Assembly: GCA_029932915.1 (NCBI GenBank)
Contig: JAOZPE010000009.1
Coordinates: 15,785-76,273, forward strand
Length of the DNA stretch: 60,489 nucleotides
Direction: 5' to 3'
DNA from: Candidatus Krumholzibacteriia bacterium
GTDB lineage: Bacteria; Krumholzibacteriota; Krumholzibacteriia; JAJRXK01
In this document: positions 1 through 16,401 of the stretch, in pieces
Layout of the letters: each line of letters begins with the position of its first letter
Position numbering within the stretch: position 1 is the first letter of the stretch
Program-made: the position numbers and the translations under genes
The notes under the pieces: generated by a model
Database searches by the model: none
What the model was told of the DNA's origin: nothing
What the model saw: the letters and a program-made list of their open reading frames with translations, nothing else

Positions 1-72
1 AACTCGCCGGGTCCACCCGATCGCCCCCGGGCACGGCGGGAGCAAGGCGGCCGCACATCCTTCGGTCTGCCC

Positions 73-1092
73 TCAGGCGTAGCGACGGCGGATGGCCGGC
101 ACCAGGTACTCGGCGAAGGCTGAATCCACGTCGTAGACCGGAGCGAAGCCCCAGTCCTCGCGCGCGGCGCTGTCGTCGGTGTCCACCGGCCAGCTGTCGA
201 CGATGGCCTGCCGCTTCAGATCGGGTTCGAAGCGGATCTGGGCAGAGGGGAAGTGCTCGCGCACCTTCGCCGCGAACTCGCCGGCGGTGAGGCTGAAGGC
301 GGTGATGTTGTAGACCGAATGCTTCAGGTCCTGCTGGGGCGCCGCGCTCAGGCGCAGGAGCCCATCGACCGCGTCGGGCATGGCCATGAAGGGAATGGCC
401 GTGTCCTCGCGCACGAAGCAGGCATAGCTCTCCCCCTTGGCCGCCGCGTGCAGCATCTCCGGGGCGAAGTCGCTGGTGCCCCCGCTGGGCACGGTCACCG
501 CCGAGATGAGGCCGGGGAAGCGGATGCTGCGGAAGTCGACGGTGCGCTGGTCCTTCTCCGCCGCCAACTGCCGGTAGTAGCGCGAGAAGTACCGCCCCAG
601 CGCTTCGCAGTACAGCTTGTTGCAGCCGTACATGGTGGTCGGCGCGATCCACTCGTACTCCTTCACCTTCCCCGCCCGGGCCTTCGTCTCCAGATCGGGC
701 AGCCCGTAGACGGCGATGGACGAGGGGAAGAGGAACTTCACCGGCTGGCCGCTCCAGCTCGACTGCTCCAGGGCGAGTTGCATGAGACCCATGGTGCCGT
801 CGACGTTCACCTGGTGCGCGGTCTCCGGGGCGAACTCGGCCCGGGTGGAGAGCAGGGCGGCCAGGTGGTAGATCTCGGTGATCTCGTAGCGGCTGACGAT
901 ACGCTCGGTCAACTGGGTGTCCAGGATGCTGCCGACGAAGACCTCCTGGCAGCGGCGGGCCAGCTCCTCGTCCAGGGGAACCAGATCGAGGGCGATGATG
1001 TCCTTGTCGCCCTCCTGGGAGATGCGCTCGATCAGACCGTGTCCGATCTCCCCATTGGCTCCAGTGACCAGTACCACCTGTTTGCGCACCAT
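73..1092 (-). CDS. NAD-dependent epimerase/dehydratase, probable L-threonine 3-dehydrogenase (SDR type)
   Basis: A 339-aa Rossmann-fold short-chain dehydrogenase. The N-terminus carries the NAD-binding glycine motif GANGEIG (residues 11-17). A serine pair in SSIAVYG and the YGCNK motif supply the catalytic Ser, Tyr and Lys. The segment GGTSDFAPEMLHAA is what I would expect in SDR-type L-threonine dehydrogenases, which oxidise threonine to 2-amino-3-ketobutyrate. The length fits that family. The ATG is preceded by AGGAGG at a short spacing, which supports the start. The permease gene lies upstream on the same strand, but the 179-base gap makes co-transcription uncertain. No 2-amino-3-ketobutyrate ligase lies next to it, so another sugar-nucleotide epimerase substrate remains possible. 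Confidence 0.8.
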   Translation of the reverse strand: MVRKQVVLVTGANGEIGHGLIERISQEGDKDIIALDLVPLDEELARRCQEVFVGSILDTQLTERIVSRYEITEIYHLAALLSTRAEFAPETAHQVNVDGTMGLMQLALEQSSWSGQPVKFLFPSSIAVYGLPDLETKARAGKVKEYEWIAPTTMYGCNKLYCEALGRYFSRYYRQLAAEKDQRTVDFRSIRFPGLISAVTVPSGGTSDFAPEMLHAAAKGESYACFVREDTAIPFMAMPDAVDGLLRLSAAPQQDLKHSVYNITAFSLTAGEFAAKVREHFPSAQIRFEPDLKRQAIVDSWPVDTDDSAAREDWGFAPVYDVDSAFAEYLVPAIRRRYA

Positions 1093-1124
1093 GACGCCTC
1101 CTCACCACGAAGCAGTTGGGCCTC

Positions 1125-1145
1125 CCCCACCCATCACCGGTGGGG
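1125..1145. terminator. GC-rich hairpin upstream of the dehydrogenase
   Basis: A 7-bp perfect stem (CCCCACC at 1125-1131 with GGTGGGG at 1139-1145) closes a 7-base loop. It sits between the stop of the NCS2 permease and the start of the dehydrogenase. It could end or attenuate the permease transcript, but no T-run follows on the minus strand. The rest of 1093-1271 holds nothing I recognise. Confidence 0.3.
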
Positions 1146-1271
1146 AGACCGTTCTCGAACGATCGTCCCCGAATATGTCGCCTGGGCCAAGCGGGAAAAA
1201 GGACGGGATCGGCTGTCTCACCCTCTTCGCACGGCTCCTGTCATCCTCCACTCCGATACCCTCGAAGCGCT

Positions 1272-2624
1272 TCAGCCCCCGAGCTGGGCCTTCATCACGA
1301 ACACCAGGGCCAGCAGCACCGACAGGACGGCCAGCAGGGGAGGGATCTCCCGCGCCCGCCCTGCCAGCAGCTTCAACAGGGGCCAGGCCAGGAAACCCAG
1401 GGCCAGACCGTCGGCGATGGACAGGGTCAGGGGCATCCCCACCATCACCAGGAACGCCGGGATCGACTCGCCCGGATCGTCCCAGGGGATGTCGCGCGCC
1501 CCGCGCATCATCATCGAACCCACCAGGATCAACACCGGCGCGGTCACCGGATACAGCAGATGGCCGCCGCCGAGATCGACGCCCCCGCCGACCATGCTCA
1601 CCAGCGGGTGGAAGAACAGCGCCAGCAGGAAGAACAGGCCGGTCACCATCGAGGCCAGTCCGGTACGGGCCCCGGCCGCCACTCCGGCCGCGCTCTCGAT
1701 GTAGGAGGACACCGTCGAGGTCCCCAGCAGCGCTCCGGCCGTCGTGCCCGCCGCGTCGGCCAGCAGCGCGCGGTCGGCCCGCTTGAGCTTGCCGTCGACC
1801 ATCAGGCCCGCCTGCTGTCCGACCCCCATCAGGGTACCGACGGTGTCGAAGAGCACCATGAACAGGAAGATCACCACCACCGGCAGCATCGCCACGTCGA
1901 GCAGGGCAGCCAGGTCCAGGTGTCCCAGCACCGGCCGCGGGTCGGGGGGCAGGGAGACCACCCCCTGCCAGTGCACCAGCCCCACGGCCAGGCCGGCCGC
2001 GGTGGTCAGCAACAGACCCCAGAGAAGGGCGCCGGCCTGCCGGCGGACCATCAGACCGCCCGTGACCACCAGCCCGAAGAGGGTGAGCAGCACCGCCGGG
2101 CTGCCCAGATCGCCCAGGGCCACCAAGGCGCCCGGGGCATCCACCACCAGGCCCCCGTGCTGCAGACCGACGAAGGCGATCAACAGGCCGATGCCGGCCG
2201 GAATGGCGTGGCGCAGGCCAACCGGCAGCGCGTCGAGCAAGCGCTCCCGCAGATGCACCAGGGACAGGGCGAGGAAGAGCAGTCCAGAGACGAAGACCGC
2301 GGCCAGGGCCGCCTGCCAGCTCACCGCCACACCAGTGACGCCCCCGAGCACGACCGAGACGAAGAAGAAGTTCTCCCCCATCACCGGAGCCAGGGCGACG
2401 GGATAGTTGGCCCACCAGGCCATCAGGAAGGTGGCCAGCGCGCTGGCCGCACAGGTGGCCACCATCACCGCCCCGAAGTCCATGCCTGCCGTCGACAGCA
2501 CCGCCGGCTGCACGAAGACGATGTAGGACATGGCCAGGAAGGTCACCACGCCTCCTCTGATTTCATCGCGCACGGTGGTGCCGTGCTGCTCGAGGGCGAA
2601 TCTGCGCTGCAACCAAGCGCCCAT
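1272..2624 (-). CDS. NCS2 family nucleobase permease
   Basis: A 450-aa polytopic inner-membrane protein of the xanthine/uracil/guanine-hypoxanthine (AzgA-like) branch of NCS2. The N-terminus has the typical segment in which an EIRGG motif precedes the first membrane helix, followed by MSYIVFVQPAVLS. The usual GMGLNA-type signature in the third helix appears here as APVMGENFFF, which suggests a substrate preference that differs from E. coli guanine permeases. About a dozen hydrophobic segments alternate with short loops. The ATG at 2624 is chosen because GGAGGAG lies six bases upstream; an extension to 2696 adds 24 non-hydrophobic residues and has no ribosome-binding site. The purine or pyrimidine transported cannot be told from sequence alone. 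Confidence 0.85.
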   Translation of the reverse strand: MGAWLQRRFALEQHGTTVRDEIRGGVVTFLAMSYIVFVQPAVLSTAGMDFGAVMVATCAASALATFLMAWWANYPVALAPVMGENFFFVSVVLGGVTGVAVSWQAALAAVFVSGLLFLALSLVHLRERLLDALPVGLRHAIPAGIGLLIAFVGLQHGGLVVDAPGALVALGDLGSPAVLLTLFGLVVTGGLMVRRQAGALLWGLLLTTAAGLAVGLVHWQGVVSLPPDPRPVLGHLDLAALLDVAMLPVVVIFLFMVLFDTVGTLMGVGQQAGLMVDGKLKRADRALLADAAGTTAGALLGTSTVSSYIESAAGVAAGARTGLASMVTGLFFLLALFFHPLVSMVGGGVDLGGGHLLYPVTAPVLILVGSMMMRGARDIPWDDPGESIPAFLVMVGMPLTLSIADGLALGFLAWPLLKLLAGRAREIPPLLAVLSVLLALVFVMKAQLGG

Positions 2625-2739
2625 GGTCGACTCCTCCGGGAAAAGAAGACATGTGCCGTCCGCGCCGATCATGGCCCAGCCACAGCAGGTGGGCAAGACG
2701 GGGATGCACAGCCACGAGCTGGGGAAGGATCAAGAGCCT

Positions 2740-3792
2740 CTACCGTTGAGACTCGGCGTCGATCAGATAGCGGGTGAGAGCGTAGAACAGGCAGACGACG
2801 ACCAGCTCGATCATGGCCGACCACTGGTCGCGGTAGAACATGAAGGGCTGGGTCACGAAGATCGACACCAGCAGTGAGCGCTGGAACATGCGGTAGGCGG
2901 CCAGGCGGTGGCGGAAGATCATCAGGGCGCCGAGAATGACGAAGATTCCCGAGACCACGAAGGACACACCGAGGATCCAGTCGATCATGCCCAGACTCGC
3001 CAATGCCCGGGCCTTCTGCCCTGGATGGAACATCACCGGGGCGGCCGCGTCACCACCCCGGGAGAAGAAGATCACCACCATGCCCCGCAGCGATCCGGCA
3101 GCCTGCAGGGCGAAGGCCACCAGGATGACGAACCACGAGAAGCGGCGGCCGTCCGCCACGCTCCGGTAGGCTTCGTCGAGGCGCCGCCGCAGACGGATGA
3201 TGGCCGGAGGCCGGTGGTCGGGAACCACCCGCGCCGACTCGAGCACCCCCCTTACCGCCCGGGTCAGGGGATCGTCCTGGGGACTGTGGTCGAGATAGTG
3301 GCGGATGCGATCGCGCTCCCTCGACTCCAGGTCATCGACCACCACCTCCTCCATCTCCACCAGCGCGTTGACCAGGTAGTCGCCGGGACGGGCCATCTGT
3401 TCGCGGTGGATCGAACGCACCACCAGATACAGAGCGATGAAGACCAGATAGATGAGGGCAATGGTGGGCTGGAAGAAGTAGTCGTTGTCCTTGGTGATGA
3501 ACTTCCCCAGCTCATCGATGAACAGGCCGAAACCGATTCCACCCACCAGCGAGGCGGGATACTTGATCTGGCGACCCAGGAAGAGCAGCAGCATCACCAG
3601 GGCGATGAGCATGCCCAGACCACCCCACAACATGTGGGCGATGTGCAGTCCACCCATCGCCACCTGCGGGTAACCGGTGAGCAGCAGGTAGAAACGGGTC
3701 AACAGGATGGTGATGATGGCGGCGATCAGGAAGAGATCGAAGTAGTTGCCACCTTCGAAATCAGGGACCGCCCGGCGACGCGATTGGAACAC
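2740..3792 (-). CDS. Conserved integral membrane protein, function unknown
   Basis: A 350-aa membrane protein that starts with GTG only three bases after the subtilase stop, so it is the last gene of the CHAT operon. Four hydrophobic segments lie in the first 130 residues. A charged cytoplasmic or periplasmic stretch (about 135-215) contains the acidic run MEEVVVDDLE. Three or four more membrane helices follow to the C-terminus. I recognise no catalytic motif. Its position directly behind two protease-type genes suggests a partner, anchor or target of that module, but this is inference only. There is no clear Shine-Dalgarno sequence, which fits translational coupling to the upstream gene. Confidence 0.75.
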   Translation of the reverse strand: MFQSRRRAVPDFEGGNYFDLFLIAAIITILLTRFYLLLTGYPQVAMGGLHIAHMLWGGLGMLIALVMLLLFLGRQIKYPASLVGGIGFGLFIDELGKFITKDNDYFFQPTIALIYLVFIALYLVVRSIHREQMARPGDYLVNALVEMEEVVVDDLESRERDRIRHYLDHSPQDDPLTRAVRGVLESARVVPDHRPPAIIRLRRRLDEAYRSVADGRRFSWFVILVAFALQAAGSLRGMVVIFFSRGGDAAAPVMFHPGQKARALASLGMIDWILGVSFVVSGIFVILGALMIFRHRLAAYRMFQRSLLVSIFVTQPFMFYRDQWSAMIELVVVCLFYALTRYLIDAESQR

Positions 3793-3795
3793 GGT

Positions 3796-4848
3796 TCAAG
3801 AGGCTCGATCGAAGAAATGATTCCCGCTGTCGAGGACAGCGACATCGCGCGCATCCAGAGGGTGCCAGGCCAAGCCCCAGTCCACCTGTCCCCCTTCGAT
3901 CTGCACACGACCGACGTGTGCCGGCAGATCGACGACCAGCCAGCGTGCTCCACGGTAGACGCAACATGCCCGGTCGTGCAACGGGGGAAACAGACGAGGC
4001 GGCTCGCCGCCGTTCCAGCTCAGGGCGAGACGGTGGGGACCGGGCGCCGGCCGGCGCCACCAGGAAACCCGATGACCGTGCCTGGTGACGAGGCTTCCCG
4101 TCTCGAGGATCCGCTGCAGACGCTCCGTCTCGGGCGTTCCCGGGCTGGGAATGTCCCCACCCGCGGGACGCGCACCGGCCAGCAGCACCGCGCGAACGAC
4201 TTCGGGCCGCCACTGCTCAGGTCGCAGCCGGCACAGGATCTCGGTGACCCGGGCCGCGAGCCGCGGCGCCGCGAAGGACGAGCCATGGCGTCCACCCAGG
4301 GGATCGCTCCCGTCGGCCAGGAGGATCTCGCTCTCGCTCGCGTCGATCGCACAATCCCCCCACCATCGCTTGCGGGCATCGGCCGCCAGCACCTCCGGAA
4401 GCGAGGCGGGAAGGTACAGACGACGCCCCTCGGTCAAGCCGTCACTGGGCTGACCGGCCGCGGCGACCACGATCACCCCGCTCCGGCGGCACAGGCGCTG
4501 CAAACCCTCTTCCAGCGCCCTCCAACCGTGATCGCGCTCGAGGGACCGACGTCCCCAACTGATGGTGACGATCTGCGCTCCGCGGTGGACCAGGCGCTCG
4601 ATCGCCGCCAGCCAGGCGTGGGCGTCGGCCCGGGGAGCAAGGCTCTCGAAGATGCAACGGGACGGCCCGGATCCTCCCAAGGCCTCCAGGTACGCCAGGA
4701 GCACCGAGGTGGGATGGTCGGCGACTCCGTCCTCCCCATACAGGGAGAAGGAGGGAATGAAGGGAAGACGCAGCAGCAGGGGCTCGAGCCGATGATGTCT
4801 CAGATCGGGACGCCCCATATCGACGAATGCTGCGACCGGCTTTTCCAT
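3796..4848 (-). CDS. Compact subtilisin-like (S8) serine protease homologue
   Basis: A 350-aa S8-type domain with no propeptide and no signal peptide. The catalytic triad can be traced: Asp10 in AAFVDMGRPD, His45 in DHPTSVLLAYL (equivalent to HGTHVA) and Ser191 in GSSFAAP. The oxyanion-hole Asn, normally found in VAAAGN, is replaced by Gln133 (VAAAGQ), so activity may be reduced or altered. Residues after about 270 form a short C-terminal beta-rich extension. The start at 4848 follows the stop of the upstream 216-aa gene by five bases; a longer reading from 4983 would overlap that gene. It lies in an operon with a CHAT-domain protein, which suggests a proteolytic signalling pathway rather than nutrient degradation. 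Confidence 0.75.
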   Translation of the reverse strand: MEKPVAAFVDMGRPDLRHHRLEPLLLRLPFIPSFSLYGEDGVADHPTSVLLAYLEALGGSGPSRCIFESLAPRADAHAWLAAIERLVHRGAQIVTISWGRRSLERDHGWRALEEGLQRLCRRSGVIVVAAAGQPSDGLTEGRRLYLPASLPEVLAADARKRWWGDCAIDASESEILLADGSDPLGGRHGSSFAAPRLAARVTEILCRLRPEQWRPEVVRAVLLAGARPAGGDIPSPGTPETERLQRILETGSLVTRHGHRVSWWRRPAPGPHRLALSWNGGEPPRLFPPLHDRACCVYRGARWLVVDLPAHVGRVQIEGGQVDWGLAWHPLDARDVAVLDSGNHFFDRAS

Positions 4849-4853
4849 GGTAC

Positions 4854-5504
4854 CTACTTGGGAGGATAGGGCAGAGCCCCATCGGTCTGCTGCGGCCCGC
4901 CTGCCCGGGCCTCGAAGGCCCTCTTCAGCCGGCTGCTCTCGTCCTCGAAGAGGGGATGAGGGGAATCCTCCCCCTTGCGCCACACCCAGGGCTTCAGATC
5001 GAGACCCTGCAGGGCGAAGAGATAGTGGTCGCCATCACCCTCCCCCCGGTACTCGTAGACGTAGTTGAGATGGGGATCCCTGAAGACCAGGGCCGTGTCC
5101 CAGTCCTCCTTGCGCCCGCCGGCGTCGAACGATTCGCGTGGCCACTTCTTCCGTCCCCGACCGTCCGGGAGATGCACGCTGTACTCGAAGATCTTCTCCG
5201 GCGACAGCGCGTCGGGGGGCGCACCCTCCTCACGCGGCCACAGGATCACGACCTGGTCGCGCGAGATCGCGGGCGGAACGGCGGAGATCTTCCTTCCCTC
5301 GTCGTCTTCGAACTCGTAGAGCACCGAGCTCGAGTTGTTCAGGACCAGGAGCACCACCCTGTCCGGGTCGAAGAAACTCTTCTTCCCCCGTCCGGGATCG
5401 TGCTCGAAGCCATACTGGACGAAGGACATCTTCCCCATCCCGATGGAAAGATGGTTGTCGCCGATCTGGATCGTGCTGGGATCTGTATTCGAGCCGTTTG
5501 CCAT
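4854..5504 (-). CDS. Hypothetical protein between CHAT and subtilase genes
   Basis: A 216-aa soluble, charged protein with no signal peptide, membrane helix or motif that I recognise. The middle is rich in alternating hydrophobic residues (VVLLVLNNSSSVLYEFEDD), which suggests a beta-sandwich. The C-terminal 40 residues are charged and proline/glycine-rich and probably flexible. It starts 30 bases after the CHAT stop and ends five bases before the subtilase start, so the three are surely co-transcribed. A partner or substrate of one of the two proteases is a reasonable guess, but nothing in the sequence proves it. Confidence 0.7.
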   Translation of the reverse strand: MANGSNTDPSTIQIGDNHLSIGMGKMSFVQYGFEHDPGRGKKSFFDPDRVVLLVLNNSSSVLYEFEDDEGRKISAVPPAISRDQVVILWPREEGAPPDALSPEKIFEYSVHLPDGRGRKKWPRESFDAGGRKEDWDTALVFRDPHLNYVYEYRGEGDGDHYLFALQGLDLKPWVWRKGEDSPHPLFEDESSRLKRAFEARAGGPQQTDGALPYPPK

Positions 5505-5534
5505 GACATGCTTCTCCCCGAGCGTGGGTTTCGA

Positions 5535-8500
5535 TCAAGGACCATAGGCTCGGAAAGCACCCCAATCGCGCTCGAGCCTGCCATCGCCCTGAGCCATCTC
5601 CAACTGGGCGCCTTGCAACGCGGCGGCCACCGAGTCGTTCGAACCCAGGAGCCTTCGGTAGAAGGTGCGCATCAGCTCCAGCGTGGCCTCGTCCTCTACT
5701 TTCCATAAGGACGCGATCAGATCGCGACTTCCCCCCGAAAAGATCGCCGCCCCCAGGGTCGACAGTCCGCCCTCGACGACGGACGAACCGAGTTGTGAAC
5801 TCTCACATCCGGCCAGGGTCACCAGGGAGACCTTCCGCAGGGGCCATCGCGTCAGTTCCCCGCCGTGCAGCAGTCCCGCCCGCGAATCTTCCGGGGCCAA
5901 CAGGAGGAAGGGTTCCCCGAACTCGTCGAGTCCACTGTGGGAAGCGATGTGCAGGATGCCCACCCCACCGGCCAGGGCCGCCGAGACCGCCGAAGCCGTC
6001 GCCCGCTCCCCGCACAGTGCCACCCCATCGGCCGAGAGAGCCGCAACCTGTCTCGCCTCCTCCTCGGCCAGGGGCAGAGGGCGGATTCCCAGATGGGACG
6101 GAGCGGCCGATCCACCGTAGCCGACGGCGAGCAAGCGGGCCCGCCGATCCAGCGGCGGGCGGGCGCTCAGCAACACCCGGATGCTTCCACTGAGTTCGTA
6201 GGAGACGACCTGCTCCCGGAGAAGGGGTTCCCCATGCGGACGCAGGAGAACGAAGGGAAGGCGGCTCAGCGGCGCATCGGCCACGATGATCACCCGTCGG
6301 GCCTGCCGTCGTTCGTCCTCGATGGGAGCGAGGAGCAGGTCAGCCAGCTCGTGGGCCAGCGGGCTGGGCACGCCACTGTGGATGGAACGTTCCCAATCGG
6401 CGATCCGCCGGCTCAACTCGGCCCGGCCGATCGCGACTGCGGCATACCGCAGCCGGGAGGAGCCGAGGGTCCAGACGTCGATGCGCTCCTGGTTCACGCG
6501 GTACTGCACGAGCAGCTCGCCCGGAGCAAGGGTCGCCTGTACCCGCTCGACCACCGACAGACTCGAGCTGTCCGGCGATCCCACCAATAGCGGGGAATCC
6601 TCGCCCACACGTTCGAGGAGGGCCCGGGCACGCGCCCTCTCGTCCACCGCGTAGGCCGCGGCCGGGTCGTGCAGGACACGGGCGAGCAGATCGATGTACT
6701 CGTCGAAGAGATCGGAGGCGGGAAGGAGCAGCTCGGCCCGCATCTGCGCCTCGTCCAGTTCGGCGCTGAGGGTCTCCAGGCGGTGCAGCGCGTTCTCGTA
6801 GCGCGCCGCCGCCTCGCGGGGTGAGCCCTCCCGGAGCAGGCGACGCGCCTGCAGGGCGTCGACCCGCCACAGATCGTAGGCGAGCTGTTCCCTGCGGGCG
6901 AGGGCCTCGCTCTCCTGGAGGGTCTGCCGGGCCGCCCCGATCCGGCCGGTCTGGAGCTGTTCCTCGGCCCGGGCCAACTGCACGTAGAGGGTCTGGCGGT
7001 ACTGGCCCGGTCCCCGGGTCGACTCGAGGGCCTTGTCGTACCACGACATCCGGCGGGGGTCCCCCGAGGGCAGGGCCCGGCCGCGGGCCAGCAGGGCCCA
7101 GGTCTGCTTCGACTGGATGCTCTGTCGGTAGGAGGCGGGCAGATCGTCGAGGAAGTCCTCGTCCACGCGCTGCAGTTCGGTGCGTGCACAGCGTTCGGCG
7201 GTCTCCATGTGGCCCCGGGCCAGGGCGATCCACGCCATTCCATTGAGGGAGACGATCTGCAGATAGCGATCGCCCCGGCGGCGGCTCTCGCGGTAGGCGT
7301 GCACGACCGCCTTCCAGGAGCGGTCCAGATCGCCCAGGTCTTCCAGGGCTCCGGCCCGCACCAGTTCGAACTGCAGGGTGGAGATCCCGTAGCGCTCGGC
7401 CAGATCGCCCAGGCGGGGCAGGATCCGCAGCCGCTGGGCGCGATCGCCCGATACGCCATAGATCATGAACAGGTTGTACCAGCACGAGAAGAGATAGGCC
7501 GGATCGCCCAGCTCCTCCGCGCAGCGAACCGCCTGGCGGTACTCCTCCCGCTGCTCGCGCACCTTCCCCAGTTCACCCAGCGCGAAGCCCCGCCCCCAGT
7601 GCCAACGTCCGGCCAGGTACCACAGCCCCAGCTCGCTGCAGGCCGCCCCCTTCCCCTCGGAGAGGGCCACCGCCCGGCGGCATCGCTCCTTCCAGCTCCA
7701 CTGGGACTGCGAGAAGAGCGCATCGAAGCGGTGCTGGTCGCGCACGAGCTGCAGGGCCTGCTTCGCCGAGCTGCCCTGGAGTGAGCGGATCGCCTGCATC
7801 CGCCGGCGTACACCCGCGTAGAAATCGGGTGGATCCCAGGGAATCGCCTCCATCAACGATTCGACCTCGTGGAAGTCCACCTCCCTTCCATTCCCGCTGC
7901 GCTCGAGCCCCTCCTCGATGGGCCCATCCATGCTCTTCTGCAGGGTGAGCAGGTACGAAGCCGGAGCCAGCCGGGCTGCCTCGCGCATCCTCCAGGTGTC
8001 CTGGGCCGCGCGGGCGGCCTCGAAGTGGGGGCTCCAGGTGTCCATCCCCGACGACGAAGCCCGTACCATGGCCTTCCACAGGCGGCGGCGGGCGGGAACG
8101 GGAAGGGAGGGCAACGAGTCGAGCAGGGCCTGGGCGGCCGCCGTCCGTCCCCACTCGCACTCGATCCAGGCCAAACCCCAGCGGCAGCTCGTCCCCATGC
8201 CCTCGACATCCTCGATCGAGTGCAGCAGTTCGCTGGCCCTCTGCAGATGCTTCTCGCCCTCGAGGGGATCGCTCTCGGAGGACTCCAGGGCCACCCTCGC
8301 CGCCGCCTCGAGGAAGGCGAGCTGGGCCGCCTCCGGCCTGGGCCACGCTCGCGCAGCCCGTGCGCGGGTGAGGGTCCGCAGCGCCCGGCGCGGCTGGCCC
8401 AGTCTCAGTTGCAGGATCGCGGTCTCCGTCCAGCTCGCCAGGCGCTCTGGTGCCACCACGGTGGCTTCCACCCCCCGATCGAGCCTTCCCTCCAGGGTCT

Positions 8501-8657
8501 CCTCGTCCTGCTCCCCGTCGATCCAGACGGACAGGGACGGCGGAAGGAGCAGGGGCGTCCCGTTCCAAGGGGCCTGGACCTGGGCATCCGTGGGCGGCGG
8601 CGCGGCCAGGGAGGCCGCGATGAAGAGCAGGGCGATCGCGATACCGAAGGGGCGCAT
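5535..8657 (-). CDS. Exported TPR-CHAT domain protein (caspase-like cysteine peptidase)
   Basis: A 1040-aa protein. Residues 1-25 form a signal peptide (hydrophobic core IAIALLFIAASLA, small residues before PPPTDA). The long middle region (about 60-700) is built of helical TPR-like repeats. The C-terminal 200 residues are a CHAT domain with the His/Cys dyad: His907 in ASHSGLD and Cys951 in LAGCESS, followed by the GGSRDLIASLWKV strand typical of the family. CHAT proteins are clan CD peptidases related to caspases and separase. The start at 8657 is chosen for the signal peptide; a longer reading to 8894 runs into the divergent gene. First gene of a four-gene operon with a subtilase. Export suggests action in the periplasm or at the surface. 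Confidence 0.85.
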   Translation of the reverse strand: MRPFGIAIALLFIAASLAAPPPTDAQVQAPWNGTPLLLPPSLSVWIDGEQDEETLEGRLDRGVEATVVAPERLASWTETAILQLRLGQPRRALRTLTRARAARAWPRPEAAQLAFLEAAARVALESSESDPLEGEKHLQRASELLHSIEDVEGMGTSCRWGLAWIECEWGRTAAAQALLDSLPSLPVPARRRLWKAMVRASSSGMDTWSPHFEAARAAQDTWRMREAARLAPASYLLTLQKSMDGPIEEGLERSGNGREVDFHEVESLMEAIPWDPPDFYAGVRRRMQAIRSLQGSSAKQALQLVRDQHRFDALFSQSQWSWKERCRRAVALSEGKGAACSELGLWYLAGRWHWGRGFALGELGKVREQREEYRQAVRCAEELGDPAYLFSCWYNLFMIYGVSGDRAQRLRILPRLGDLAERYGISTLQFELVRAGALEDLGDLDRSWKAVVHAYRESRRRGDRYLQIVSLNGMAWIALARGHMETAERCARTELQRVDEDFLDDLPASYRQSIQSKQTWALLARGRALPSGDPRRMSWYDKALESTRGPGQYRQTLYVQLARAEEQLQTGRIGAARQTLQESEALARREQLAYDLWRVDALQARRLLREGSPREAAARYENALHRLETLSAELDEAQMRAELLLPASDLFDEYIDLLARVLHDPAAAYAVDERARARALLERVGEDSPLLVGSPDSSSLSVVERVQATLAPGELLVQYRVNQERIDVWTLGSSRLRYAAVAIGRAELSRRIADWERSIHSGVPSPLAHELADLLLAPIEDERRQARRVIIVADAPLSRLPFVLLRPHGEPLLREQVVSYELSGSIRVLLSARPPLDRRARLLAVGYGGSAAPSHLGIRPLPLAEEEARQVAALSADGVALCGERATASAVSAALAGGVGILHIASHSGLDEFGEPFLLLAPEDSRAGLLHGGELTRWPLRKVSLVTLAGCESSQLGSSVVEGGLSTLGAAIFSGGSRDLIASLWKVEDEATLELMRTFYRRLLGSNDSVAAALQGAQLEMAQGDGRLERDWGAFRAYGP

Positions 8658-8839
8658 GGCCCTATTCGACCACGAATGCAGCGGCCTTGTCACCACCTGG
8701 ACGATTTCCGGTAGGAGCCGGACCGTCCTTGTCGTCCTGGAAGAAGAAGGGAGGTTCGAGCTCGGCTTGACGCTCCCCGCGTCGGAAAGCAGACTGGCCT
8801 CGTCAGTGGAAACGCCGATTCCTTCTGTCGGGAGCCCAA
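8658..8839. promoter_or_regulatory. Divergent control region between CHAT operon and sigma-factor gene
   Basis: The 182 bases separate two divergent starts (8657 minus, 8840 plus), so promoters for both transcription units should lie here. I see GGGAG six bases before the GTG of the sigma gene as its ribosome-binding site. I could not identify a convincing -35/-10 pair or a GGAAC-N16-CGTC-type ECF promoter by eye. Confidence 0.5.
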
Positions 8840-10516
8840 GTGAGAATCGACGCGGAGACCTCGTTCGCCGATCTGTACGCGCGCTGCGTGGCATCGGACG
8901 AAGAACGAGCGTGGGGTGAGCTGATCCGCCGTTTCGATTCCGTCGTCCTGAGGGCGGCGGCCGGCACCTACCGCGTTCTCGTTCCCGGCCGGTACAGACC
9001 GGAGGACATCGAGGATGCCCGACAGGAGACCTGGATGCGACTCATCCGCAACAACCGCCGTCATGTTCGAACCCAACCCGACCGCAGCGAGGGCGAATTC
9101 CACGTCTACCTGCGTACCACTGCCGCCAACGTGGTTCGCGATCACCTGAAGGCCGAACGAAGCCTGAAACGGCCGAAGATCGCTGCTCTGGACGCCGAGA
9201 CCCTCGAACTGGTCCTCTCCCAGGCCCGGCACGACGGTCCCAGCCCCGACGAGTGGACCCACACCCAGCAGATCGTCGAGCAGATCACTCCCATCCTGCG
9301 CAGACACTGGAGTGACCGTCCCACCTGCGAACGGGACATCGCCATCTGCAATCTGGCCCTCATGGACGGCGTGAGCGCCGCCCGTATCGCCTCCATCGAG
9401 AGCTTCGGGCTGAGCCGGGGCGGCGTGGAGAAGGTGATCGAACGGGGACGCAGAATCCTCCGGCGCCACTTCGGTGGTCCCGGCGCGCGCTCCCGTTTCA
9501 TCGACGGCGACCGGTCCGGAGAGGATGGTCCCCCTCCTCCGGACTGGCGCGATCCCGACGAGATCGTGGCCTTCGTGCTGGGCGAACTCGACGAATGGAC
9601 CACCGCCCAGCGGATGGCCCTGTTGAGTCGGGACGCCCGAGCCCGGCGGGCACTCACCACGGTGGCCTCCCTCCTGGAGGCCCCCCTCGATGACGCCCTG
9701 TCCAGAGAGCTGCAGATCCACGACGGGGTGTCGTACTTCCGGAAGCTGCGCCGGAAGGTCCAGAGGGAGGATCGGCCGTCGATCTTCGCCTTCCCACGCT
9801 GGCCCCGAACCCAACTCGCCCAGGCGATCGTGGCCACGGCCGCCCTGCTGACGGTCGTCTTCTCCCCGCTGATCGAGGAAGGACGGCGCGGGCCCACTCC
9901 TACGGTCGTCCCCGTTTCCAGCCGTCTCATTCCCTCGCTTCCCTCCTACCCGCAGGACGCGGTCGCCCCGCTCCGTCTGCCCCAACCCTTCGCCCCGGAG
10001 GGTTCCGGGCCGATGCGCGGGACGGTGGAGCCGGTGGACGAGGACCGTCTCCTGGAGGTCGAGGACGCGTTGATCCTCGAGCGCAGCGAAGGCAAGGATC
10101 CGGTGGCCATCAGCAACGCCCTGGGACACCTGAAGCTGGCGCGGGGACGCTTCGAACTGGCCGCCCGCAACTACTCCCTGGCGCTTCGTCACGATCCGCT
10201 CAACGCCGAGGCGCTCATCGGTCTCTCGGTGGTGCGCTATCACCAGGCGATGAGCGACAGCGATCCCACGCGGCGGCAGGAGCTGCTCGAGCAGGCGGAC
10301 GAGATGCTGGCCCGGGTCGAACCCTCCTCACCCCTCTACCTCCAGGCGCTCTACGACCGGGTCTACGTGGCCCTGGCCGGGGGCCGGCTCGATGAGGCCG
10401 TCCAGCTCGCCGAACGCTATCATCAGTGGTCCGGCGACGACGGATGGATGCGTGCACTGCGAGCCGCGGTCGAGCGCAGCCGCACTTCCACGGACACCCA
10501 CCTCGAACAGGACTAG
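8840..10516 (+). CDS. Sigma-70 family protein with fused membrane anchor and TPR domain
   Basis: A 558-aa multidomain protein. Residues 10-110 match sigma region 2 (DIEDARQETWMRLIRN resembles the 2.2/2.3 helix). About 140-212 looks like sigma region 4 (the SAARIASIESFGLSRGGVEKVI helices). Residues 236-290 resemble an anti-sigma N-terminal domain (DEIVAFVLGELDEWTTAQR) without zinc ligands. A single membrane helix spans 325-342 (LAQAIVATAALLTVVF). A proline-rich linker leads to TPR repeats at about 405-530. The topology would place the sigma part in the cytoplasm and the TPRs in the periplasm. The GTG start has GGGAG six bases upstream. Divergent from the CHAT operon, which probably belongs to its regulon or controls it. 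Release by proteolysis is the obvious hypothesis. Confidence 0.8.
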   Translation: MRIDAETSFADLYARCVASDEERAWGELIRRFDSVVLRAAAGTYRVLVPGRYRPEDIEDARQETWMRLIRNNRRHVRTQPDRSEGEFHVYLRTTAANVVRDHLKAERSLKRPKIAALDAETLELVLSQARHDGPSPDEWTHTQQIVEQITPILRRHWSDRPTCERDIAICNLALMDGVSAARIASIESFGLSRGGVEKVIERGRRILRRHFGGPGARSRFIDGDRSGEDGPPPPDWRDPDEIVAFVLGELDEWTTAQRMALLSRDARARRALTTVASLLEAPLDDALSRELQIHDGVSYFRKLRRKVQREDRPSIFAFPRWPRTQLAQAIVATAALLTVVFSPLIEEGRRGPTPTVVPVSSRLIPSLPSYPQDAVAPLRLPQPFAPEGSGPMRGTVEPVDEDRLLEVEDALILERSEGKDPVAISNALGHLKLARGRFELAARNYSLALRHDPLNAEALIGLSVVRYHQAMSDSDPTRRQELLEQADEMLARVEPSSPLYLQALYDRVYVALAGGRLDEAVQLAERYHQWSGDDGWMRALRAAVERSRTSTDTHLEQD

Positions 10517-10974
10517 CCGGGCGAAAGCCGGCAGCGGGCAGGCGATCCCCCTCCGGGGCGATCGCCCCGTACCACGGGTCCCCCCACGAGGGGATCGTCG
10601 CGTACCACGGCCCAGGCGATCCCGAGGACATTCCATCGACGACGACGGCGGCCCGGAAGGCCGCCGTCATCGTCTCGCTTCGCTCTGTGCTGGAAGGATG
10701 ATGGCTCTCGGTGGCGGGGAGGGGGTTCCTTTCGGAAAGGCTCCCATTTTCCGTCCGGTCCCCTCCCCAGGAGCCCACCAGAACCTGACGAATGGGACCA
10801 GGTCCGGTTCCGTGGGTCTCTTCATCTGAGGACGAGAACCGCAGGAGGATTCCCCCTCTCGATCGAGAAGAAAAACCATCGAATCCACCCGAGCGTCTCT
10901 TCGGCCAGCAGCTACCTGGCCCGTATCTACTTGACCAGGCTGGCCCACATCTATTTGACCAGCCCGACCGGCAT
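10517..10974. other. 458-base intergenic region rich in palindromes
   Basis: No credible gene lies here between the sigma-like gene and the convergent acyl-CoA dehydrogenase. It holds a perfect 16-base palindrome (CGGGGCGATCGCCCCG at 10554-10569) and two copies of CGTACCACGG (10568-10577 and 10601-10610). It also holds a 10-bp hairpin (10644-10668) and a 24-base tandem repeat at its right end. I saw no tRNA-like fold. Confidence 0.6.
10644..10668 (+). terminator. Hairpin downstream of the sigma-factor gene
   Basis: A perfect 10-bp stem (GACGGCGGCC with GGCCGCCGTC) closes a 5-base loop. Only a weak pyrimidine-rich stretch (TCATCGTCTCGCTT) follows, so it may be a poor intrinsic terminator or a processing/stability hairpin for the convergent transcripts. 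Confidence 0.45.
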
Positions 10975-10986
10975 CTACTTGACCAG
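10925..10986 (-). repeat. Three copies of a 24-base unit that reiterate the stop codon of the acyl-CoA dehydrogenase
   Basis: The 14-base core ATCTAYTTGACCAG occurs at 10925, 10949 and 10973, an exact 24-base period. On the minus strand the third copy is the end of the dehydrogenase gene (Leu-Val-Lys-stop). The next two copies, in the same frame, again read Leu-Val-Lys-stop, each preceded by an ATG directly after the previous TAG (TAGATG). Readthrough or reinitiation would meet the same C-terminal tripeptide and stop again. It probably arose by slippage duplication. Confidence 0.9.
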
Positions 10987-12114
10987 CGCGTTGGCGATGA
11001 CCACGCGCTGGATCTGGTTGGTACCCTCGTAGATCTGGGTGATCTTGGCGTCACGCATGTACTTCTCCATGGGGTAGTCCCGCATGTAGCCGTAGCCGCC
11101 GACGATCTGCACCGCATCGGTGGTGACCCTCATCGCCACGTCGCTGGCGAAGAGCTTGGCCATCGCCGATTCCTTCGAGATGTTCCTCTCGCCGCGATCG
11201 ATCATCCGGGCGACCGAATACACCAGCGAGCGGGCCGCCTCGATCTGCGTGGCCAGGTCGGCGATCATGAACTGGATGCCCTGGAAGGCGGTGATGGGCC
11301 TGCCGAACTGACGGCGTTCCTTGGCGTAGGCGATGGCCTCGTCCAGGGCCCCCTGGGCGATGCCCACGGCCTGCGCACCGACGCCCGGCCGGGTGTGGTC
11401 GAAGGTCCTCATCGCGGTGATGAAACCGCTGCCCTTGCGGCCCAACAGGTTCTCCTTGGGGATCTCGCAGTCCTGGAACACCAACTCGGTGGTCTTCGAG
11501 GCGCGGATGCCCATCTTGTTCTCCTCCTTGCCGAAGGAGAATCCCGGCGTTCCCTTCTCCACCACGAAGGCACTCAGGCCGCGCGCGCCACGGCTGGGAT
11601 CGGTCGCTGCCAGGACGGTGTAGATGTCGGCGATCTCACCATTGGTGATGAACTGCTTGGTGCCGTTGAGCACCCAGCCCGTGTCGGTCTCCCGGGCGGT
11701 GGTCTGGATACCGCCGGCGTCGCTGCCCGCGTTGGGCTCGGTCAGGGCGAAGGCGGCGAAGCTCTTGCCGCTGGCGATGCGGCTGAGGTACTTCTGCTTC
11801 TGCTCCTCGTTGCCCGCCAGGATGATCGGCTGAGCCGCCAGGGCATTCGCCGAGTAGGTCGTCGCCACTCCGGCGCACACCCGGCTCAGCTCCTCGGCGA
11901 CGATGCAGATCTCCATGACGCCGCCGCCGATTCCCTCGTACTCCTCGGGAATGAAGACCCGGAAGAGATCGGCCTGGGCCATGGCCGCCATGGCTTCGTG
12001 CGGAAACTCCCCCTTCTCGTCCAACTCCGCGCGAACCGGGAGCACCTTCTCCTGGGCGATCTTCCGGGTGAGATCGCGAATCATGATCTCGCGTTCGTTG
12101 AAATCGTAATCCAT
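10975..12114 (-). CDS. Acyl-CoA dehydrogenase (short/medium-chain type)
   Basis: A 379-aa flavoprotein of the acyl-CoA dehydrogenase family, which catalyses alpha,beta-dehydrogenation of acyl-CoA and passes electrons to ETF. It has the FAD/substrate signature FALTEPNAGSDAG, the KQFITNG segment and the GGYGYMRDYPMEKYMRDAK signature. The catalytic base is expected at the Glu of QIYEGTNQIQR, the position used by SCAD and MCAD enzymes. The length matches the family exactly. It stands alone, with no ETF or enoyl-CoA hydratase beside it. A run AGAGAGAG lies just before the ATG. The chain-length preference (butyryl, branched or glutaryl-like) cannot be fixed by eye. Confidence 0.9.
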   Translation of the reverse strand: MDYDFNEREIMIRDLTRKIAQEKVLPVRAELDEKGEFPHEAMAAMAQADLFRVFIPEEYEGIGGGVMEICIVAEELSRVCAGVATTYSANALAAQPIILAGNEEQKQKYLSRIASGKSFAAFALTEPNAGSDAGGIQTTARETDTGWVLNGTKQFITNGEIADIYTVLAATDPSRGARGLSAFVVEKGTPGFSFGKEENKMGIRASKTTELVFQDCEIPKENLLGRKGSGFITAMRTFDHTRPGVGAQAVGIAQGALDEAIAYAKERRQFGRPITAFQGIQFMIADLATQIEAARSLVYSVARMIDRGERNISKESAMAKLFASDVAMRVTTDAVQIVGGYGYMRDYPMEKYMRDAKITQIYEGTNQIQRVVIANALVK

Positions 12115-12232
12115 GACTCTCTCTTCGATCTGAGGGTGACATCTACAGGCGAAGCCGCCACGGCCCTCCAGGGGGAAGGCGCGCCGGATTCCGGGGGAAG
12201 AGATCCGGCCGAGAAGCGACGTCGAAGCAGGA

Positions 12233-12250
12233 CCCCGCGCAGGCGCGGGG
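12233..12250. other. Short GC hairpin in the 12115-12423 intergenic region
   Basis: CCCCGCG (12233-12239) pairs with CGCGGGG (12244-12250) around a 4-base loop. It lies upstream of the acyl-CoA dehydrogenase (minus) and of the glycosyltransferase (plus). No T-run follows on either strand. The remainder of the 309-base gap contains no gene that I can support and must hold the two divergent promoters. Confidence 0.35.
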
Positions 12251-12423
12251 AAGGGCGATGATACTCAGAACCGGCGTTTCCGCCAACCAGACGGATGCGC
12301 CCGGGCGAAAATCGTCTCCAGATCGAGAACCAGCCTCTCGGTACCCCACGAGAAGGAGCGGCACGAGTGGGAGCAGCTCCGATCTGGACGTAGGGCTTTC
12401 TCCTGTGTCATGGTCCCAGCGCC

Positions 12424-13554
12424 ATGTCACCGTCGCCCCCACCGTCCACCTGGTTCTACTCGGACGCCCCCTACGTGGGCGGGGCCGAACTCTATCTGCA
12501 GTGGCATCTGGAGGCGGCCGGTCCTCAGCACGCCGGACTGCTGGCGCTCGACTCGCCGGGCCTGCGGCCCTGGCTGAACGACCTGCAGTCACGGGGCTTC
12601 CACGTCGAGCGCCTGCCGGTGGGCGGTCCCTGGCGCCGCCTCGCCGATCTGCGCCGCAGGCTGATGGCACTCGGTCCCCGGGTCCTCCACCTCAACTTCC
12701 CCCACCCCTACGACGGGATCTACGGCCTGGCTCCCTGGGCGGCCCGCCTGGCCGGGGTCGAGCGGGTGGTTGCCACCGAGCACCTTCCCTCGGTACCGGC
12801 GGTGGGCAAGCGCTACCGGGCCAAGCGCAGCGCGACACCACTGGTCGACGCGGCCATCTGCGTGTGCCGGGCCCACCAGACGCTCATGAGCGAACGGTGG
12901 GGCTACCTTCCCGAACGGGTGGTGGCCGTTCCCAACGGAGTGGACGACCGCAACCCCGACGGAATCGTGTGGGCCGAACGGCGGCATCCCATGCCCGTCG
13001 AACTGGCGGCCCGCGAGCGGGGCGGCGGCCCCCGCATGGTCCAACTGGGCAGCCTCGATCTGCGCAAGGGCGGCGACCTCCTGATCGAAGCCGCGGCCGA
13101 ACTGCAGCGCCGCGACATCGCCTTCCAATTGTGGTTCGTCGGAGAGGGAATCGACCGCCCTCTGCTGGAGGAGCGCATCGCCCAGGCCGGTCTCCATGGC
13201 CGGGTCCATCTGGCCGGACATCGCCGCGACACGGTGGCGATCCTGCGGGCCAGTGACATCGCCGTTCTCGCGAGTCGAAGGGAGGGCATGCCCCTCTCCC
13301 TGCTGGAGGCGATCTGCCAGGGCCTTCCCCTGGTGGCGACTGCAGTGGATGGAGTCGGCGAGGTGCTCCTGCACCGGCGCAATGGATTGCTCGTCCCTCC
13401 GGAGGATCCCCGCCTGCTCGCCTGGGCCCTGCAGGAACTCGGGGGCGACCCTGCGCGCCGGATGCGTTACGGTCGTGCCAGTCGAGAGCATTTTCAGAAG
13501 CACCACACCCTTGGCGCCATGACCCGGGCGACCTTCACGGTCCACGGGAGGTGA
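12424..13554 (+). CDS. GT4-type glycosyltransferase
   Basis: A 376-aa GT-B fold glycosyltransferase. The N-terminal acceptor half starts with YSDAPYVGGAELY, where the GGAE motif is typical of GT4. The C-terminal donor half contains GSLDLRKGGDLLIEAAAEL and the E-x7-E motif in EGMPLSLLEAICQG. It probably acts at the cytoplasmic face of the inner membrane in lipopolysaccharide, O-antigen or exopolysaccharide assembly. Its stop is followed four bases later by the start of a second glycosyltransferase, and GGAGG at the end of this gene serves as that gene's ribosome-binding site, so the pair is one operon. Donor and acceptor are unknown. The start codon itself has only a weak Shine-Dalgarno sequence. 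Confidence 0.85.
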   Translation: MSPSPPPSTWFYSDAPYVGGAELYLQWHLEAAGPQHAGLLALDSPGLRPWLNDLQSRGFHVERLPVGGPWRRLADLRRRLMALGPRVLHLNFPHPYDGIYGLAPWAARLAGVERVVATEHLPSVPAVGKRYRAKRSATPLVDAAICVCRAHQTLMSERWGYLPERVVAVPNGVDDRNPDGIVWAERRHPMPVELAARERGGGPRMVQLGSLDLRKGGDLLIEAAAELQRRDIAFQLWFVGEGIDRPLLEERIAQAGLHGRVHLAGHRRDTVAILRASDIAVLASRREGMPLSLLEAICQGLPLVATAVDGVGEVLLHRRNGLLVPPEDPRLLAWALQELGGDPARRMRYGRASREHFQKHHTLGAMTRATFTVHGR

Positions 13555-13558
13555 ACGT

Positions 13559-14800: not shown

Positions 14801-15504
14801 TCGCCGTCCTTGGCGCCGTCCTTGGCGTCGGCCTTGGCTGCGGCCTTCTCGCGCATCCTCCGCCGGAAGAGATAGGGCTTCTCGAAGGGAAGGGGCCCCT
14901 TCTCCAGGGCCTTGTGAGCCGCCTCGAGGCAGGCCCGTGCCTGCTCGGGAAGACCGTTGTCCCCGAAATGGCTCACCGTCTCGTAGGCCAGACGCGCTCG
15001 AAGCACCTCCACCGAATAGTTTCGGCCGTCGAGGAAGAAATAGCCCAGGGTGCGGCCATAGCCGTCGGTCCGGTCCGCCCGGAGCAGCTCGATACGTTCG
15101 GCCCGGGCGAAGGCTTCGTGGGCGAAGGCGCTCGCCTCGGGGCCATAGGGCTGATCCTCGCTGAGGAAATGGTTGTCGTGGGCGACCTCCGGCGTGTCGA
15201 TCCCCAGCACCCGCACGCGTTCGCGATCGTCCCCGCTCCACTGGATGACCATGGTATCGCCGTCGGTCACCCGGATGCTGTCGGGCGGCACCACGACACG
15301 GACACCCGCTGGCCGCGTCTGGCGTCGGCCCTTGGCTCCGGCGTCATGAAAGAGGCCGCCGAGGATCACCCCGGCCGTCAGCAGCAACAACAGGGCGAGC
15401 CGGAAGCGTCTCCCCGGCCGCCGTCTCGGCGGACGCCGTTCCGCCCGGCCGAATCCCTTCCCACTGCGGTCGATACCCTGTGGGGTTTCCAAACGGGTTC
15501 TCAT
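14797..15504 (-). CDS. Thermonuclease (SNase-like) with N-terminal membrane anchor
   Basis: A 235-aa protein with a staphylococcal-nuclease fold. The basic N-terminus precedes one hydrophobic segment (LALLLLLTAGVILGGLF), a signal anchor or signal peptide. The nuclease core has the calcium Asp in VTDGDT, Arg and Glu in VRVLGIDTPE, and the second catalytic Arg in DGYGRTLGY, so all key residues of the SNase active site are present. The C-terminal tail is a low-complexity Lys-Ala-Asp run encoded by near-repeats of GTCCTTGGC. ATG 15504 is preceded by AGGAG; the longer reading to 15699 has no such support. Likely function is degradation of extracellular or periplasmic nucleic acid. Confidence 0.85.
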   Translation of the reverse strand: MRTRLETPQGIDRSGKGFGRAERRPPRRRPGRRFRLALLLLLTAGVILGGLFHDAGAKGRRQTRPAGVRVVVPPDSIRVTDGDTMVIQWSGDDRERVRVLGIDTPEVAHDNHFLSEDQPYGPEASAFAHEAFARAERIELLRADRTDGYGRTLGYFFLDGRNYSVEVLRARLAYETVSHFGDNGLPEQARACLEAAHKALEKGPLPFEKPYLFRRRMREKAAAKADAKDGAKDGD

Positions 15505-15714
15505 GTGAACTCCTGTCCACGGACCAGCCCGAACCATTTCGTGGGCGTCAGGGTCCGGTGAAGATCGAGGATCCTTCTCGGAGAAATGCCCGGACCCATG
15601 GCCACGGCCGGAAACGATGTGCCGTACCGTGGAGACGAGCCCCTGTGTATACTGGATGGAACCGTCGAACCCATCCAGCCCTGAGCCGGGCACAGCCACC
15701 GCACCGGAGCCCTC

Positions 15715-16386: not shown

Positions 16387-16401
16387 GTTCTCCCGCGAAC
16401 A

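What the first reader, a model, noticed from the sequence alone, without database searches (positions are those of the whole stretch)
2740..8657. CHAT peptidase-subtilase-membrane protein operon facing a sigma factor
Two different protease folds, an unknown protein and a membrane protein are tightly co-transcribed, divergent from a membrane-tethered sigma factor. In type III-E CRISPR systems a TPR-CHAT protease cleaves a regulator that controls a sigma factor, so a comparable protease-sigma logic, without CRISPR, may exist here. The exported CHAT protein and periplasmic TPRs of the sigma protein could meet.
Basis: inference. Interest (0 to 1): 0.76.

Follow-up and report, generated by a model that had tools for sequence, protein, structure and literature searches.

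The report
Sigma factor paired with exported protease
A little-known bacterium carries a membrane-anchored gene switch next to an exported caspase-like protease, and similar pairings recur across its phylum, so the protease may cut the switch free in answer to a signal outside the cell.

Summary
The five genes are real, but only four form the unit. In the one other genus found to carry it, sigma / CHAT / small unknown / S8 keep order and orientation; the membrane-protein gene lies elsewhere. The sigma gene encodes an ECF sigma fused to an anti-sigma-like region, one transmembrane helix and a TPR domain predicted to be periplasmic. In two other Krumholzibacteriota loci the same parts are two neighbouring genes (ECF sigma; zf-HC2-TM-TPR protein) beside CHAT. 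CHAT-sigma linkage is phylum-wide: 36 of 82 CHAT ORFs, then 38 of 60 in a second batch, lie within 3 kb of an ECF sigma (about 2.6 sigma hits expected by chance in the first). Most of these CHATs have a signal peptide. Zinc-finger anti-sigmas beside them share a hydrophobic-Arg-small motif just outside the membrane: 19 of 20 where I first saw it, 13 of 19 in a hold-out, 0 of 13 controls. Best reading: the exported CHAT is a site-1 protease releasing the sigma. No cleavage was tested, and the Asp with which separase holds a P1 Arg is absent. ECF54 with CHAT and subtilase neighbours, fused sigma/anti-sigmas and Craspase are in print: a new variant of a known kind.

The parts
8840..10516 (+). ECF sigma fused to an anti-sigma-like region, TM helix and TPR domain (558 aa)
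   Evidence: Pfam Sigma70_r2 5.4e-05 and TPR_16 8.1e-06, both below their cut-offs; NCBIfam sigma70-ECF 1.1e-05, below its cut-off; model; full-length relative only in G001 among 387 genomes
9554..9769 (+). anti-sigma-like helical segment (residues 239-310) between sigma region 4 and the TM helix
   Evidence: The sister protein carries H...C..C at 278 and matches a profile of 20 zinc-finger anti-sigmas of the phylum at 19.9 bits (best domain 16.2); the window copy has lost the ligands and scores 2.1 bits; helices 239-247, 252-262, 266-279 at pLDDT 51-59
10013..10021 (+). M392-R393-G394 in the low-confidence linker between TM helix and TPR: candidate cleavage motif
   Evidence: Translation checked; R393 and G394 identical in the G001 copy; motif recurs in CHAT-linked anti-sigmas; here 46 aa after the TM helix instead of 8-28; 340-398 has pLDDT under 50
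10040..10486 (+). TPR domain (residues 401-549), predicted periplasmic
   Evidence: pLDDT 82-94 over 421-530, 66-72 at the ends; homologous to the TPR part of separate anti-sigmas L148 and L156 (hhalign probability 96.9, two-row alignments)
5535..8657 (-). exported TPR-CHAT caspase-like protease (1040 aa)
   Evidence: PF12770 E 1.1e-45; signal peptide; full-length relative in G001, 29% identity
5541..6362 (-). CHAT catalytic domain (residues 766-1039) with His907 and Cys951
4854..5504 (-). unknown protein, 216 aa, no signal peptide
   Evidence: No match in Pfam (E up to 1), NCBIfam or PADLOC (E up to 0.1); a 27% identical protein sits in the same slot in G001; profile found in G000 and G001, plus one stop-containing hit at E 0.005, of 377 genomes
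3796..4848 (-). divergent S8 (subtilase-like) protein without signal peptide
   Evidence: PF00082 E 6.2e-08; relative in the same slot in G001 at 33% identity; catalytic Asp and oxyanion Asn not conserved between the two, by eye
2740..3792 (-). multi-TM protein, adjacent but judged not part of the unit
   Evidence: Homologues in 11 of 118 genomes including this one; none of the other copies lies beside CHAT, sigma or S8 in the fetched stretches

Best explanation
This is a one-piece version of a signalling module that recurs in Krumholzibacteriota: an ECF sigma, its membrane anti-sigma, and an exported CHAT protease. Here sigma and anti-sigma are fused, so the sigma is tethered to the membrane and held off. 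On a signal outside the cytoplasm, sensed by the TPR part of CHAT and/or the TPR domain of the sigma protein, the exported CHAT cuts the linker just outside the membrane, probably at the hydrophobic-Arg-small motif (M392-R393-G394). Further proteolysis in the membrane and cytosol then frees the sigma; the co-encoded S8-like protein and its small partner, which have no signal peptide, may help in that last step. Shown by sequence: gene block, fusion architecture, phylum-wide linkage, signal peptides, CHAT dyad, recurrent motif. Inferred: that CHAT cuts the tether, where it cuts, and every role given to S8 and the small protein.
For: Four-gene block conserved in order and orientation in a second genus at 27-34% identity. 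In L148 and L156 the sigma and a zf-HC2-TM-TPR protein are separate genes next to CHAT, and that TPR part is homologous to the window sigma's. 36 of 82 CHAT ORFs within 3 kb of a sigma (about 2.6 sigma hits expected; 0.19 per kb in the first kilobase, none at 2-4 kb, 0.012-0.016 at 4-7 kb), and 38 of 60 in the second batch. 28 of 35 sigma-linked CHATs not cut by a contig end have a signal peptide by a rule that finds 0 of 39 in sigma ORFs. Motif [LMIV]R[GSAT] within 35 aa of the TM helix: 19 of 20 zinc-finger partners (shuffle 4.75), 13 of 18 usable in the hold-out (shuffle 3.4), 0 of 13 unlinked controls. In Craspase a CHAT protease cuts a sigma inhibitor (PMC10028731, passages).
Against: No cleavage data exist here for any of these proteins. 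The separase Asp that binds a P1 Arg (D2151; K670 in Craspase, PMC9729208) falls at a position that is acidic in only 4 of 142 CHATs here, so Arg at P1 has no support from that residue. The motif was read off the first set; on all 19 hold-out rows it reached 68%, just under the 70% I had set beforehand. Among seven TM partners without zinc finger in the first set only 3 carry it, among kinase-type partners 2 of 6; 18 of 37 hold-out loci with a sigma gave no zinc-finger partner and were not counted. Within 70 aa, 2 of 13 controls have it. In the window it lies 46 aa, not 8-28 aa, after the membrane. CHATs without a nearby sigma are exported as often (36 of 43). Controls differ in outer domain. 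The Zn ligands of the anti-sigma segment are lost in the window.
Confidence: 0.43

Rival explanations
1. CHAT (with the small protein and S8) is an output, not a regulator: the membrane-tethered sigma, released by ordinary house proteases, switches on the neighbouring protease genes as its effectors.
For: ECF sigmas often control adjacent genes (established knowledge, recalled). The divergent layout in window and G001 fits shared control. CHAT lies before, after or divergent from sigma in different loci.
Against: It does not explain the shared juxtamembrane motif on the CHAT side of the membrane, nor why a TM anti-sigma-like protein is so often the third partner.
Confidence: 0.27
2. ECF54-like logic: the associated proteases keep the sigma low by degrading it, and the signal stops the degradation.
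For: Proposed in print for ECF54, with carboxypeptidase, subtilase and CHAT in its context (PMC8999054). The S8 here has no signal peptide and could meet the sigma domain in the cytosol.
Against: The CHAT has a signal peptide, so it should not meet the sigma domain; the sigma here has its own anti-sigma-like tether; S8 catalytic residues are not conserved between the two copies.
Confidence: 0.13
3. Non-proteolytic docking: CHAT TPRs and the sigma TPR domain form a sensor complex, and the recurrent Arg motif is a structural or inherited feature of the linker.
For: The sigma has a TPR domain and the CHAT a TPR-like N-terminal part (weak Pfam TPR_12 match; the profile of 18 CHATs matches TPR proteins). 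Foldseek's weak hits for the sigma model, mostly generic TPR, include TPR adaptors of periplasmic proteases: LbcA at E 1.6e-03, NlpI at about 0.03.
Against: The His/Cys dyad is kept almost without exception (His in 140 of 142, Cys in 142 of 142), which argues for catalysis.
Confidence: 0.1

Closest known systems
ECF54 sigma factors (context with carboxypeptidase, subtilase and CHAT; PMC8999054 section 3.3, passage seen)
   Same: ECF sigma with CHAT and subtilase genes nearby and a proposed role of proteolysis
   Different: ECF54 is described there as controlled without an anti-sigma; here the sigma is fused to an anti-sigma-like region with a TM helix and TPRs, and the CHAT is exported
Fused sigma/anti-sigma ECFs: ECF48, ECF52 (SCO4117), ECF53 and IutY/ECF243 (PMC8999054 section 3.5.3, read)
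   Same: C-terminal fusion with an anti-sigma segment (zinc finger in ECF48/52/53), TM helix and extracytoplasmic part, expected (IutY: shown) to be released by proteolysis
   Different: Extracytoplasmic part is TPR; a CHAT protease is encoded next door; IutY is cut by Prc and RseP
Craspase: Cas7-11, Csx29 (TPR-CHAT), Csx30, CASP-sigma (PMC10028731, PMC9729208; passages seen)
   Same: TPR-CHAT protease linked to an ECF sigma and its inhibitor
   Different: RNA-guided and CRISPR-borne with a separate inhibitor; here no CRISPR-like repeat array in the first 20 kb, a signal peptide on CHAT and a membrane tether
E. coli RpoE/RseA/DegS (mentioned in PMC10028731; otherwise recalled)
   Same: Envelope-side cut of a membrane anti-sigma starts release of an ECF sigma
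   Different: DegS is a serine protease (recalled); here the candidate is a caspase-like cysteine protease

Membership tests
ECF sigma factor | Sigma-70 regions 2 and 4 only | tested here: met
   sigma70-ECF E 1.1e-05 over residues 24-209, below that model's curated cut-off; Sigma70_r2 just below its cut-off; helices in both regions modelled
Fused sigma/anti-sigma ECF (ECF48/52/53, IutY type) | Anti-sigma segment, TM helix and outer domain on the same chain | tested here: met
   Zinc-finger profile match in the G001 copy, 19.9 bits; TM and TPR; in the window copy the segment is recognisable only through G001
Fused sigma/anti-sigma ECF (ECF48/52/53, IutY type) | Release by proteolysis | not testable with these tools
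   Needs experiment
ECF54 | Sequence membership of the ECF54 group | not tested
   No ECF group models at hand; the reclassification paper is not held
ECF54 | CHAT and subtilase genes in context | tested here: met
ECF54 | No anti-sigma factor | tested here: not met
   Anti-sigma-like segment fused to the sigma, seen through the G001 copy
Craspase (type III-E) | Cas7-11 and CRISPR array beside TPR-CHAT | tested here: not met
   No array-like repeats in window 1-20000; none of the five genes is a cas gene by the family matches seen; the rest of the genome was not searched for Cas7-11
CHAT protease | CHAT domain with His/Cys dyad | tested here: met
   PF12770 E 1.1e-45; H907 and C951
CHAT protease cutting after Arg in the separase manner | Separase-type Asp for P1 Arg | tested here: not met
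   Position D989+4 is Leu in the window and acidic in 4 of 142
Active S8 subtilase | Asp-His-Ser triad and oxyanion Asn | tested here: inconclusive
   By eye: window has D, H, S but Gln for Asn; G001 has Glu for Asp with H, S, N

The most novel reading that the evidence does not exclude
Exported, separase-like CHAT proteases are the dedicated site-1 proteases of a large class of ECF sigma/anti-sigma pairs: they cut a conserved hydrophobic-Arg-small site just outside the membrane, a caspase-type counterpart of DegS, with the window protein as a fused form. This would give a natural substrate class to an expanded group of bacterial CHAT proteases without CRISPR.
Probability: 0.33. Interest if true: 0.85.

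Novelty: new variant of a known kind. Interest (0 to 1): 0.62.

Why it matters
CHAT proteins are common here (66 of 80 genomes of this class, 25 matches in one), yet in the passages I saw the worked-out natural substrate of a bacterial CHAT is Csx30 in Craspase; bacterial gasdermin is named as another. If exported CHATs cut anti-sigma factors, then a caspase/separase-type enzyme does in the bacterial envelope what DegS does in E. coli, and there is a concrete site to test: a short motif next to the membrane in over thirty proteins. The fused form in the window shows sigma, anti-sigma and outer domain as one chain.

Tried and rejected
Rejected: a five-gene unit (the membrane protein is unlinked elsewhere). 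Rejected: membership of Craspase and of the defence systems in PADLOC (no match at E up to 0.1). Led nowhere: structure of the unknown protein (mean pLDDT 32); plasmid searches with the unknown protein (no match) and with CHAT (40 records, C-terminal part only; neighbourhoods not examined); named-genome scan with the sigma pair (one locus, the G001 block); phmmer of the whole CHAT against PDB (two hits at E 0.7-1.4, snRNP proteins) and a profile of whole CHATs (the 60 shown of 429 are nearly all TPR hits); fold search with the sigma model (no match at E <= 0.001).

A wrong idea of mine, dropped: I first took D989 of the LWxVxD motif (Asp in 129 of 142) for the separase residue that binds a P1 Arg; the profile alignment to Craspase places that residue four positions later, where these CHATs have mostly Ala or Arg.

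Rows dropped or doubtful: L119 counts as sigma-linked although its sigma ORF overlaps the CHAT ORF by 369 nt. L267 (tail cut off) is left out of 13 of 18 but kept in 13 of 19. Two controls with tails under 20 aa are left out of 0 of 13. Nine extra control rows from other loci, not checked for a sigma or CHAT beside them, gave 2; one (L072) is the same protein as L156, so 1 of 8 remains. L046 and L050 have a sigma beside a CHAT hit that my two-sequence profile missed, and are not in the 82. One signal-peptide row in the linked set and three in the other set were left out as cut by a contig end. The hold-out is of new loci, not new genomes: several genomes occur in both sets, and seven of the 60 CHATs had come in with short flanks, without being examined for partners.
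Full report
What is there. The window is part of contig C5 of a 2.92 Mb, 98-contig genome. A genome of the same family, G001, holds the same block on a contig of 548,800 bases; a named record of that length with that locus is Candidatus Krumholzibacteriota OFTM315, so I place the window in that phylum. On the minus strand run CHAT (5535-8657), an unknown protein (4854-5504), an S8-like protein (3796-4848) and a membrane protein (2740-3792), with gaps of 30, 5 and 3 nt; divergent from them is the sigma gene (8840-10516). CHAT has a signal peptide and a CHAT domain with His907 and Cys951.

Conservation of the block. Among 118 genomes (relatives), G001 has a full-length CHAT relative (29% identity), a sigma relative (33%) and an S8 relative (33%) in one stretch, divergent sigma first, with a 213-aa protein between CHAT and S8 that is 27% identical to the window's unknown protein on a global alignment; BLAST alone did not find it. 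Profiles of the pair found the full-length sigma in those two genomes only, of 387, and the unknown protein in those two plus one weak stop-containing hit, of 377. The other two genomes of the family that were searched (G002, G003) gave no relative of sigma, unknown or S8. The membrane protein occurs in 11 of 118 genomes including this one; in none of the other fetched stretches is it beside CHAT, sigma or S8.

The sigma is a fusion. In G001 the sigma protein has H...C..C at residue 278 and matches a profile built from 20 zinc-finger anti-sigmas of the phylum at 19.9 bits; the window copy has lost these residues and scores 2.1 bits. The model of the window protein gives sigma helices to about residue 210, short helices 239-279, a helix at the TM position 324-341, a stretch 340-398 of very low confidence, and a TPR domain 401-549 that is confident over 421-530; overall mean pLDDT is 64.9 and pTM 0.33, so relative placement means nothing. 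In L156 (G039) and L148 (G028) a separate ECF sigma is followed by a separate zf-HC2-TM-TPR protein and then by CHAT. The TPR part of those proteins is homologous to the window sigma's (hhalign probability 96.9, E 1.3e-10 for the single comparison of two-row alignments). This is a Rosetta-stone argument that the window protein is sigma plus membrane anti-sigma in one chain.

Phylum-wide linkage. CHAT domains occur in 66 of 80 genomes of the class. In 82 CHAT ORFs, taken by CHAT similarity and not by neighbours, 36 have an ECF sigma within 3 kb; from sigma counts per genome about 2.6 sigma hits would be expected, and sigma density is 0.19 per kb in the first kilobase, 0.06 in the second, zero at 2-4 kb and 0.012-0.016 at 4-7 kb. 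In a second batch of 60 loci, 38 of 60 CHAT genes have one. On a tree of 142 CHAT domains, 73 linked and 69 not, the fewest changes of linkage are 29 (FastTree, 50 of 139 inner branches open). Linked CHATs were found in 38 of 51 genomes examined. Partners beside sigma in the first batch are 20 separate zinc-finger proteins (each with a TM helix after the finger, weakest in L105), two fused sigmas, seven proteins without the finger (six with a clear TM helix, L108 not), and in six loci 540-614 aa proteins, the three tested by Pfam being kinases with DUF4384. The same genome as the window has two more sigma/zinc-finger/CHAT modules (L035, L036). S8 genes are rarer: 6 of 82 CHATs have one within 3 kb, in G001 4 of 21 against 0.58 expected, and 2 of the 60 second-batch loci hold one at any distance.

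The juxtamembrane motif. Reading the anti-sigmas, I saw a hydrophobic-Arg-small motif soon after the TM helix. In the first set 24 of 29 membrane partners have [LMIV]R[GSAT] within 70 aa (19 of 20 with zinc finger, 3 of 7 without, 2 of 2 fused), against 2 of 15 controls, which are zinc-finger anti-sigmas of the same phylum next to sigmas without CHAT, from 40 fetched loci. As this was post hoc, I wrote down a test and fetched 60 more CHAT loci: 37 loci with a sigma, 19 with a zinc-finger TM partner, 13 of 19 with the motif; shuffled tails give 5.1 for 70 aa and 3.5 for 35 aa. My stated bar was 70%; 13 of 19 is 68%, and 72% without one truncated row. The partners without zinc finger in this batch were not counted. 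Within 35 aa the counts are 19 of 20, 13 of 18 and, in controls, 0 of 13 (0 of 10 with tails of 60 aa or more); within 70 aa controls have 2 of 13. With any residue after the Arg they are, within 35 aa, 20 of 20, 17 of 18 and 1 of 13; Lys or acidic variants are not clearly enriched. Outer domains differ: TPR in L038, L148, L156 and weakly L049 and L151; no Pfam outer domain in the other seven of the ten tested. This argues against a mere domain signature, although common descent of the linker remains possible. In the window protein the motif is M392-R393-G394, 46 aa after the helix and in the low-confidence stretch; R393 and G394 are identical in G001. Kinase-type partners carry it in 2 of 6.

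How it may work. In Craspase a CHAT protease cuts an inhibitor of a sigma factor (PMC10028731, passages). Clan CD relatives such as separase, gingipain R and MALT1 have Arg at P1 (PMC4626109, passages). But PMC9729208 (passages) states that the separase residue D2151, which reads the P1 Arg, is Lys670 in Craspase; that position is acidic in only 4 of 142 CHATs here, so Arg at P1 is not supported by it. The same paper cites cleavage of Csx30 after Leu407, and PMC10028731 places it between residues 427 and 429, with deletion of M427 preventing it; the motif could thus also be read as a cut between the hydrophobic residue and Arg. I therefore propose a cut at this motif, without fixing the register. 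S8 and the unknown protein have no signal peptide and would act in the cytosol; with the catalytic Asp changed to Glu in G001 and the oxyanion Asn to Gln in the window (by eye), S8 may be weak or a pseudo-protease.

What is known. A review names carboxypeptidase, subtilase and CHAT domains in the context of ECF54 and proteolytic control without an anti-sigma (PMC8999054, passages); it also describes fused sigma/anti-sigma ECFs (section 3.5.3 read). So each ingredient is in print. I found no paper on sigma/anti-sigma/exported-CHAT modules, and none naming both Krumholzibacteriota and sigma factors (search listings), but the library lacks most subscription papers, and the ECF reclassification paper was not held.

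Verdict. An ordinary look would file this as an ECF sigma beside proteases. The linkage and motif make it better than that: a recurrent, testable CHAT-anti-sigma partnership, of which the window holds a fused variant. The mechanism is inference.

Noticed in passing
L100, L103, L106, L112 (G001); L124, L125 (G004): Second type of CHAT operon: ECF sigma, a 540-614 aa protein, then CHAT. The three tested by Pfam (L100, L103, L112) are Ser/Thr kinases with DUF4384; the other three were typed by size and place alone.
   Followed up: partly
L103:3737-12442 and L108:5715-10763 (G001): S8 protease genes beside CHAT in further sigma-linked loci; in L108 the S8 begins with a lipoprotein-like signal and the CHAT has none by my rule, the reverse of the window arrangement.
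   Followed up: partly
G001 (Candidatus Krumholzibacteriota OFTM315): 25 CHAT matches and 50 sigma region 2 matches in one 5.8 Mb genome, the highest numbers of both among the 80 genomes of the class.
   Followed up: no
window 10915-10986: Three 24-nt tandem copies (the second and third 83% like the first), just beyond and overlapping the 3' end of the minus-strand ORF 10975-12114.
   Followed up: no
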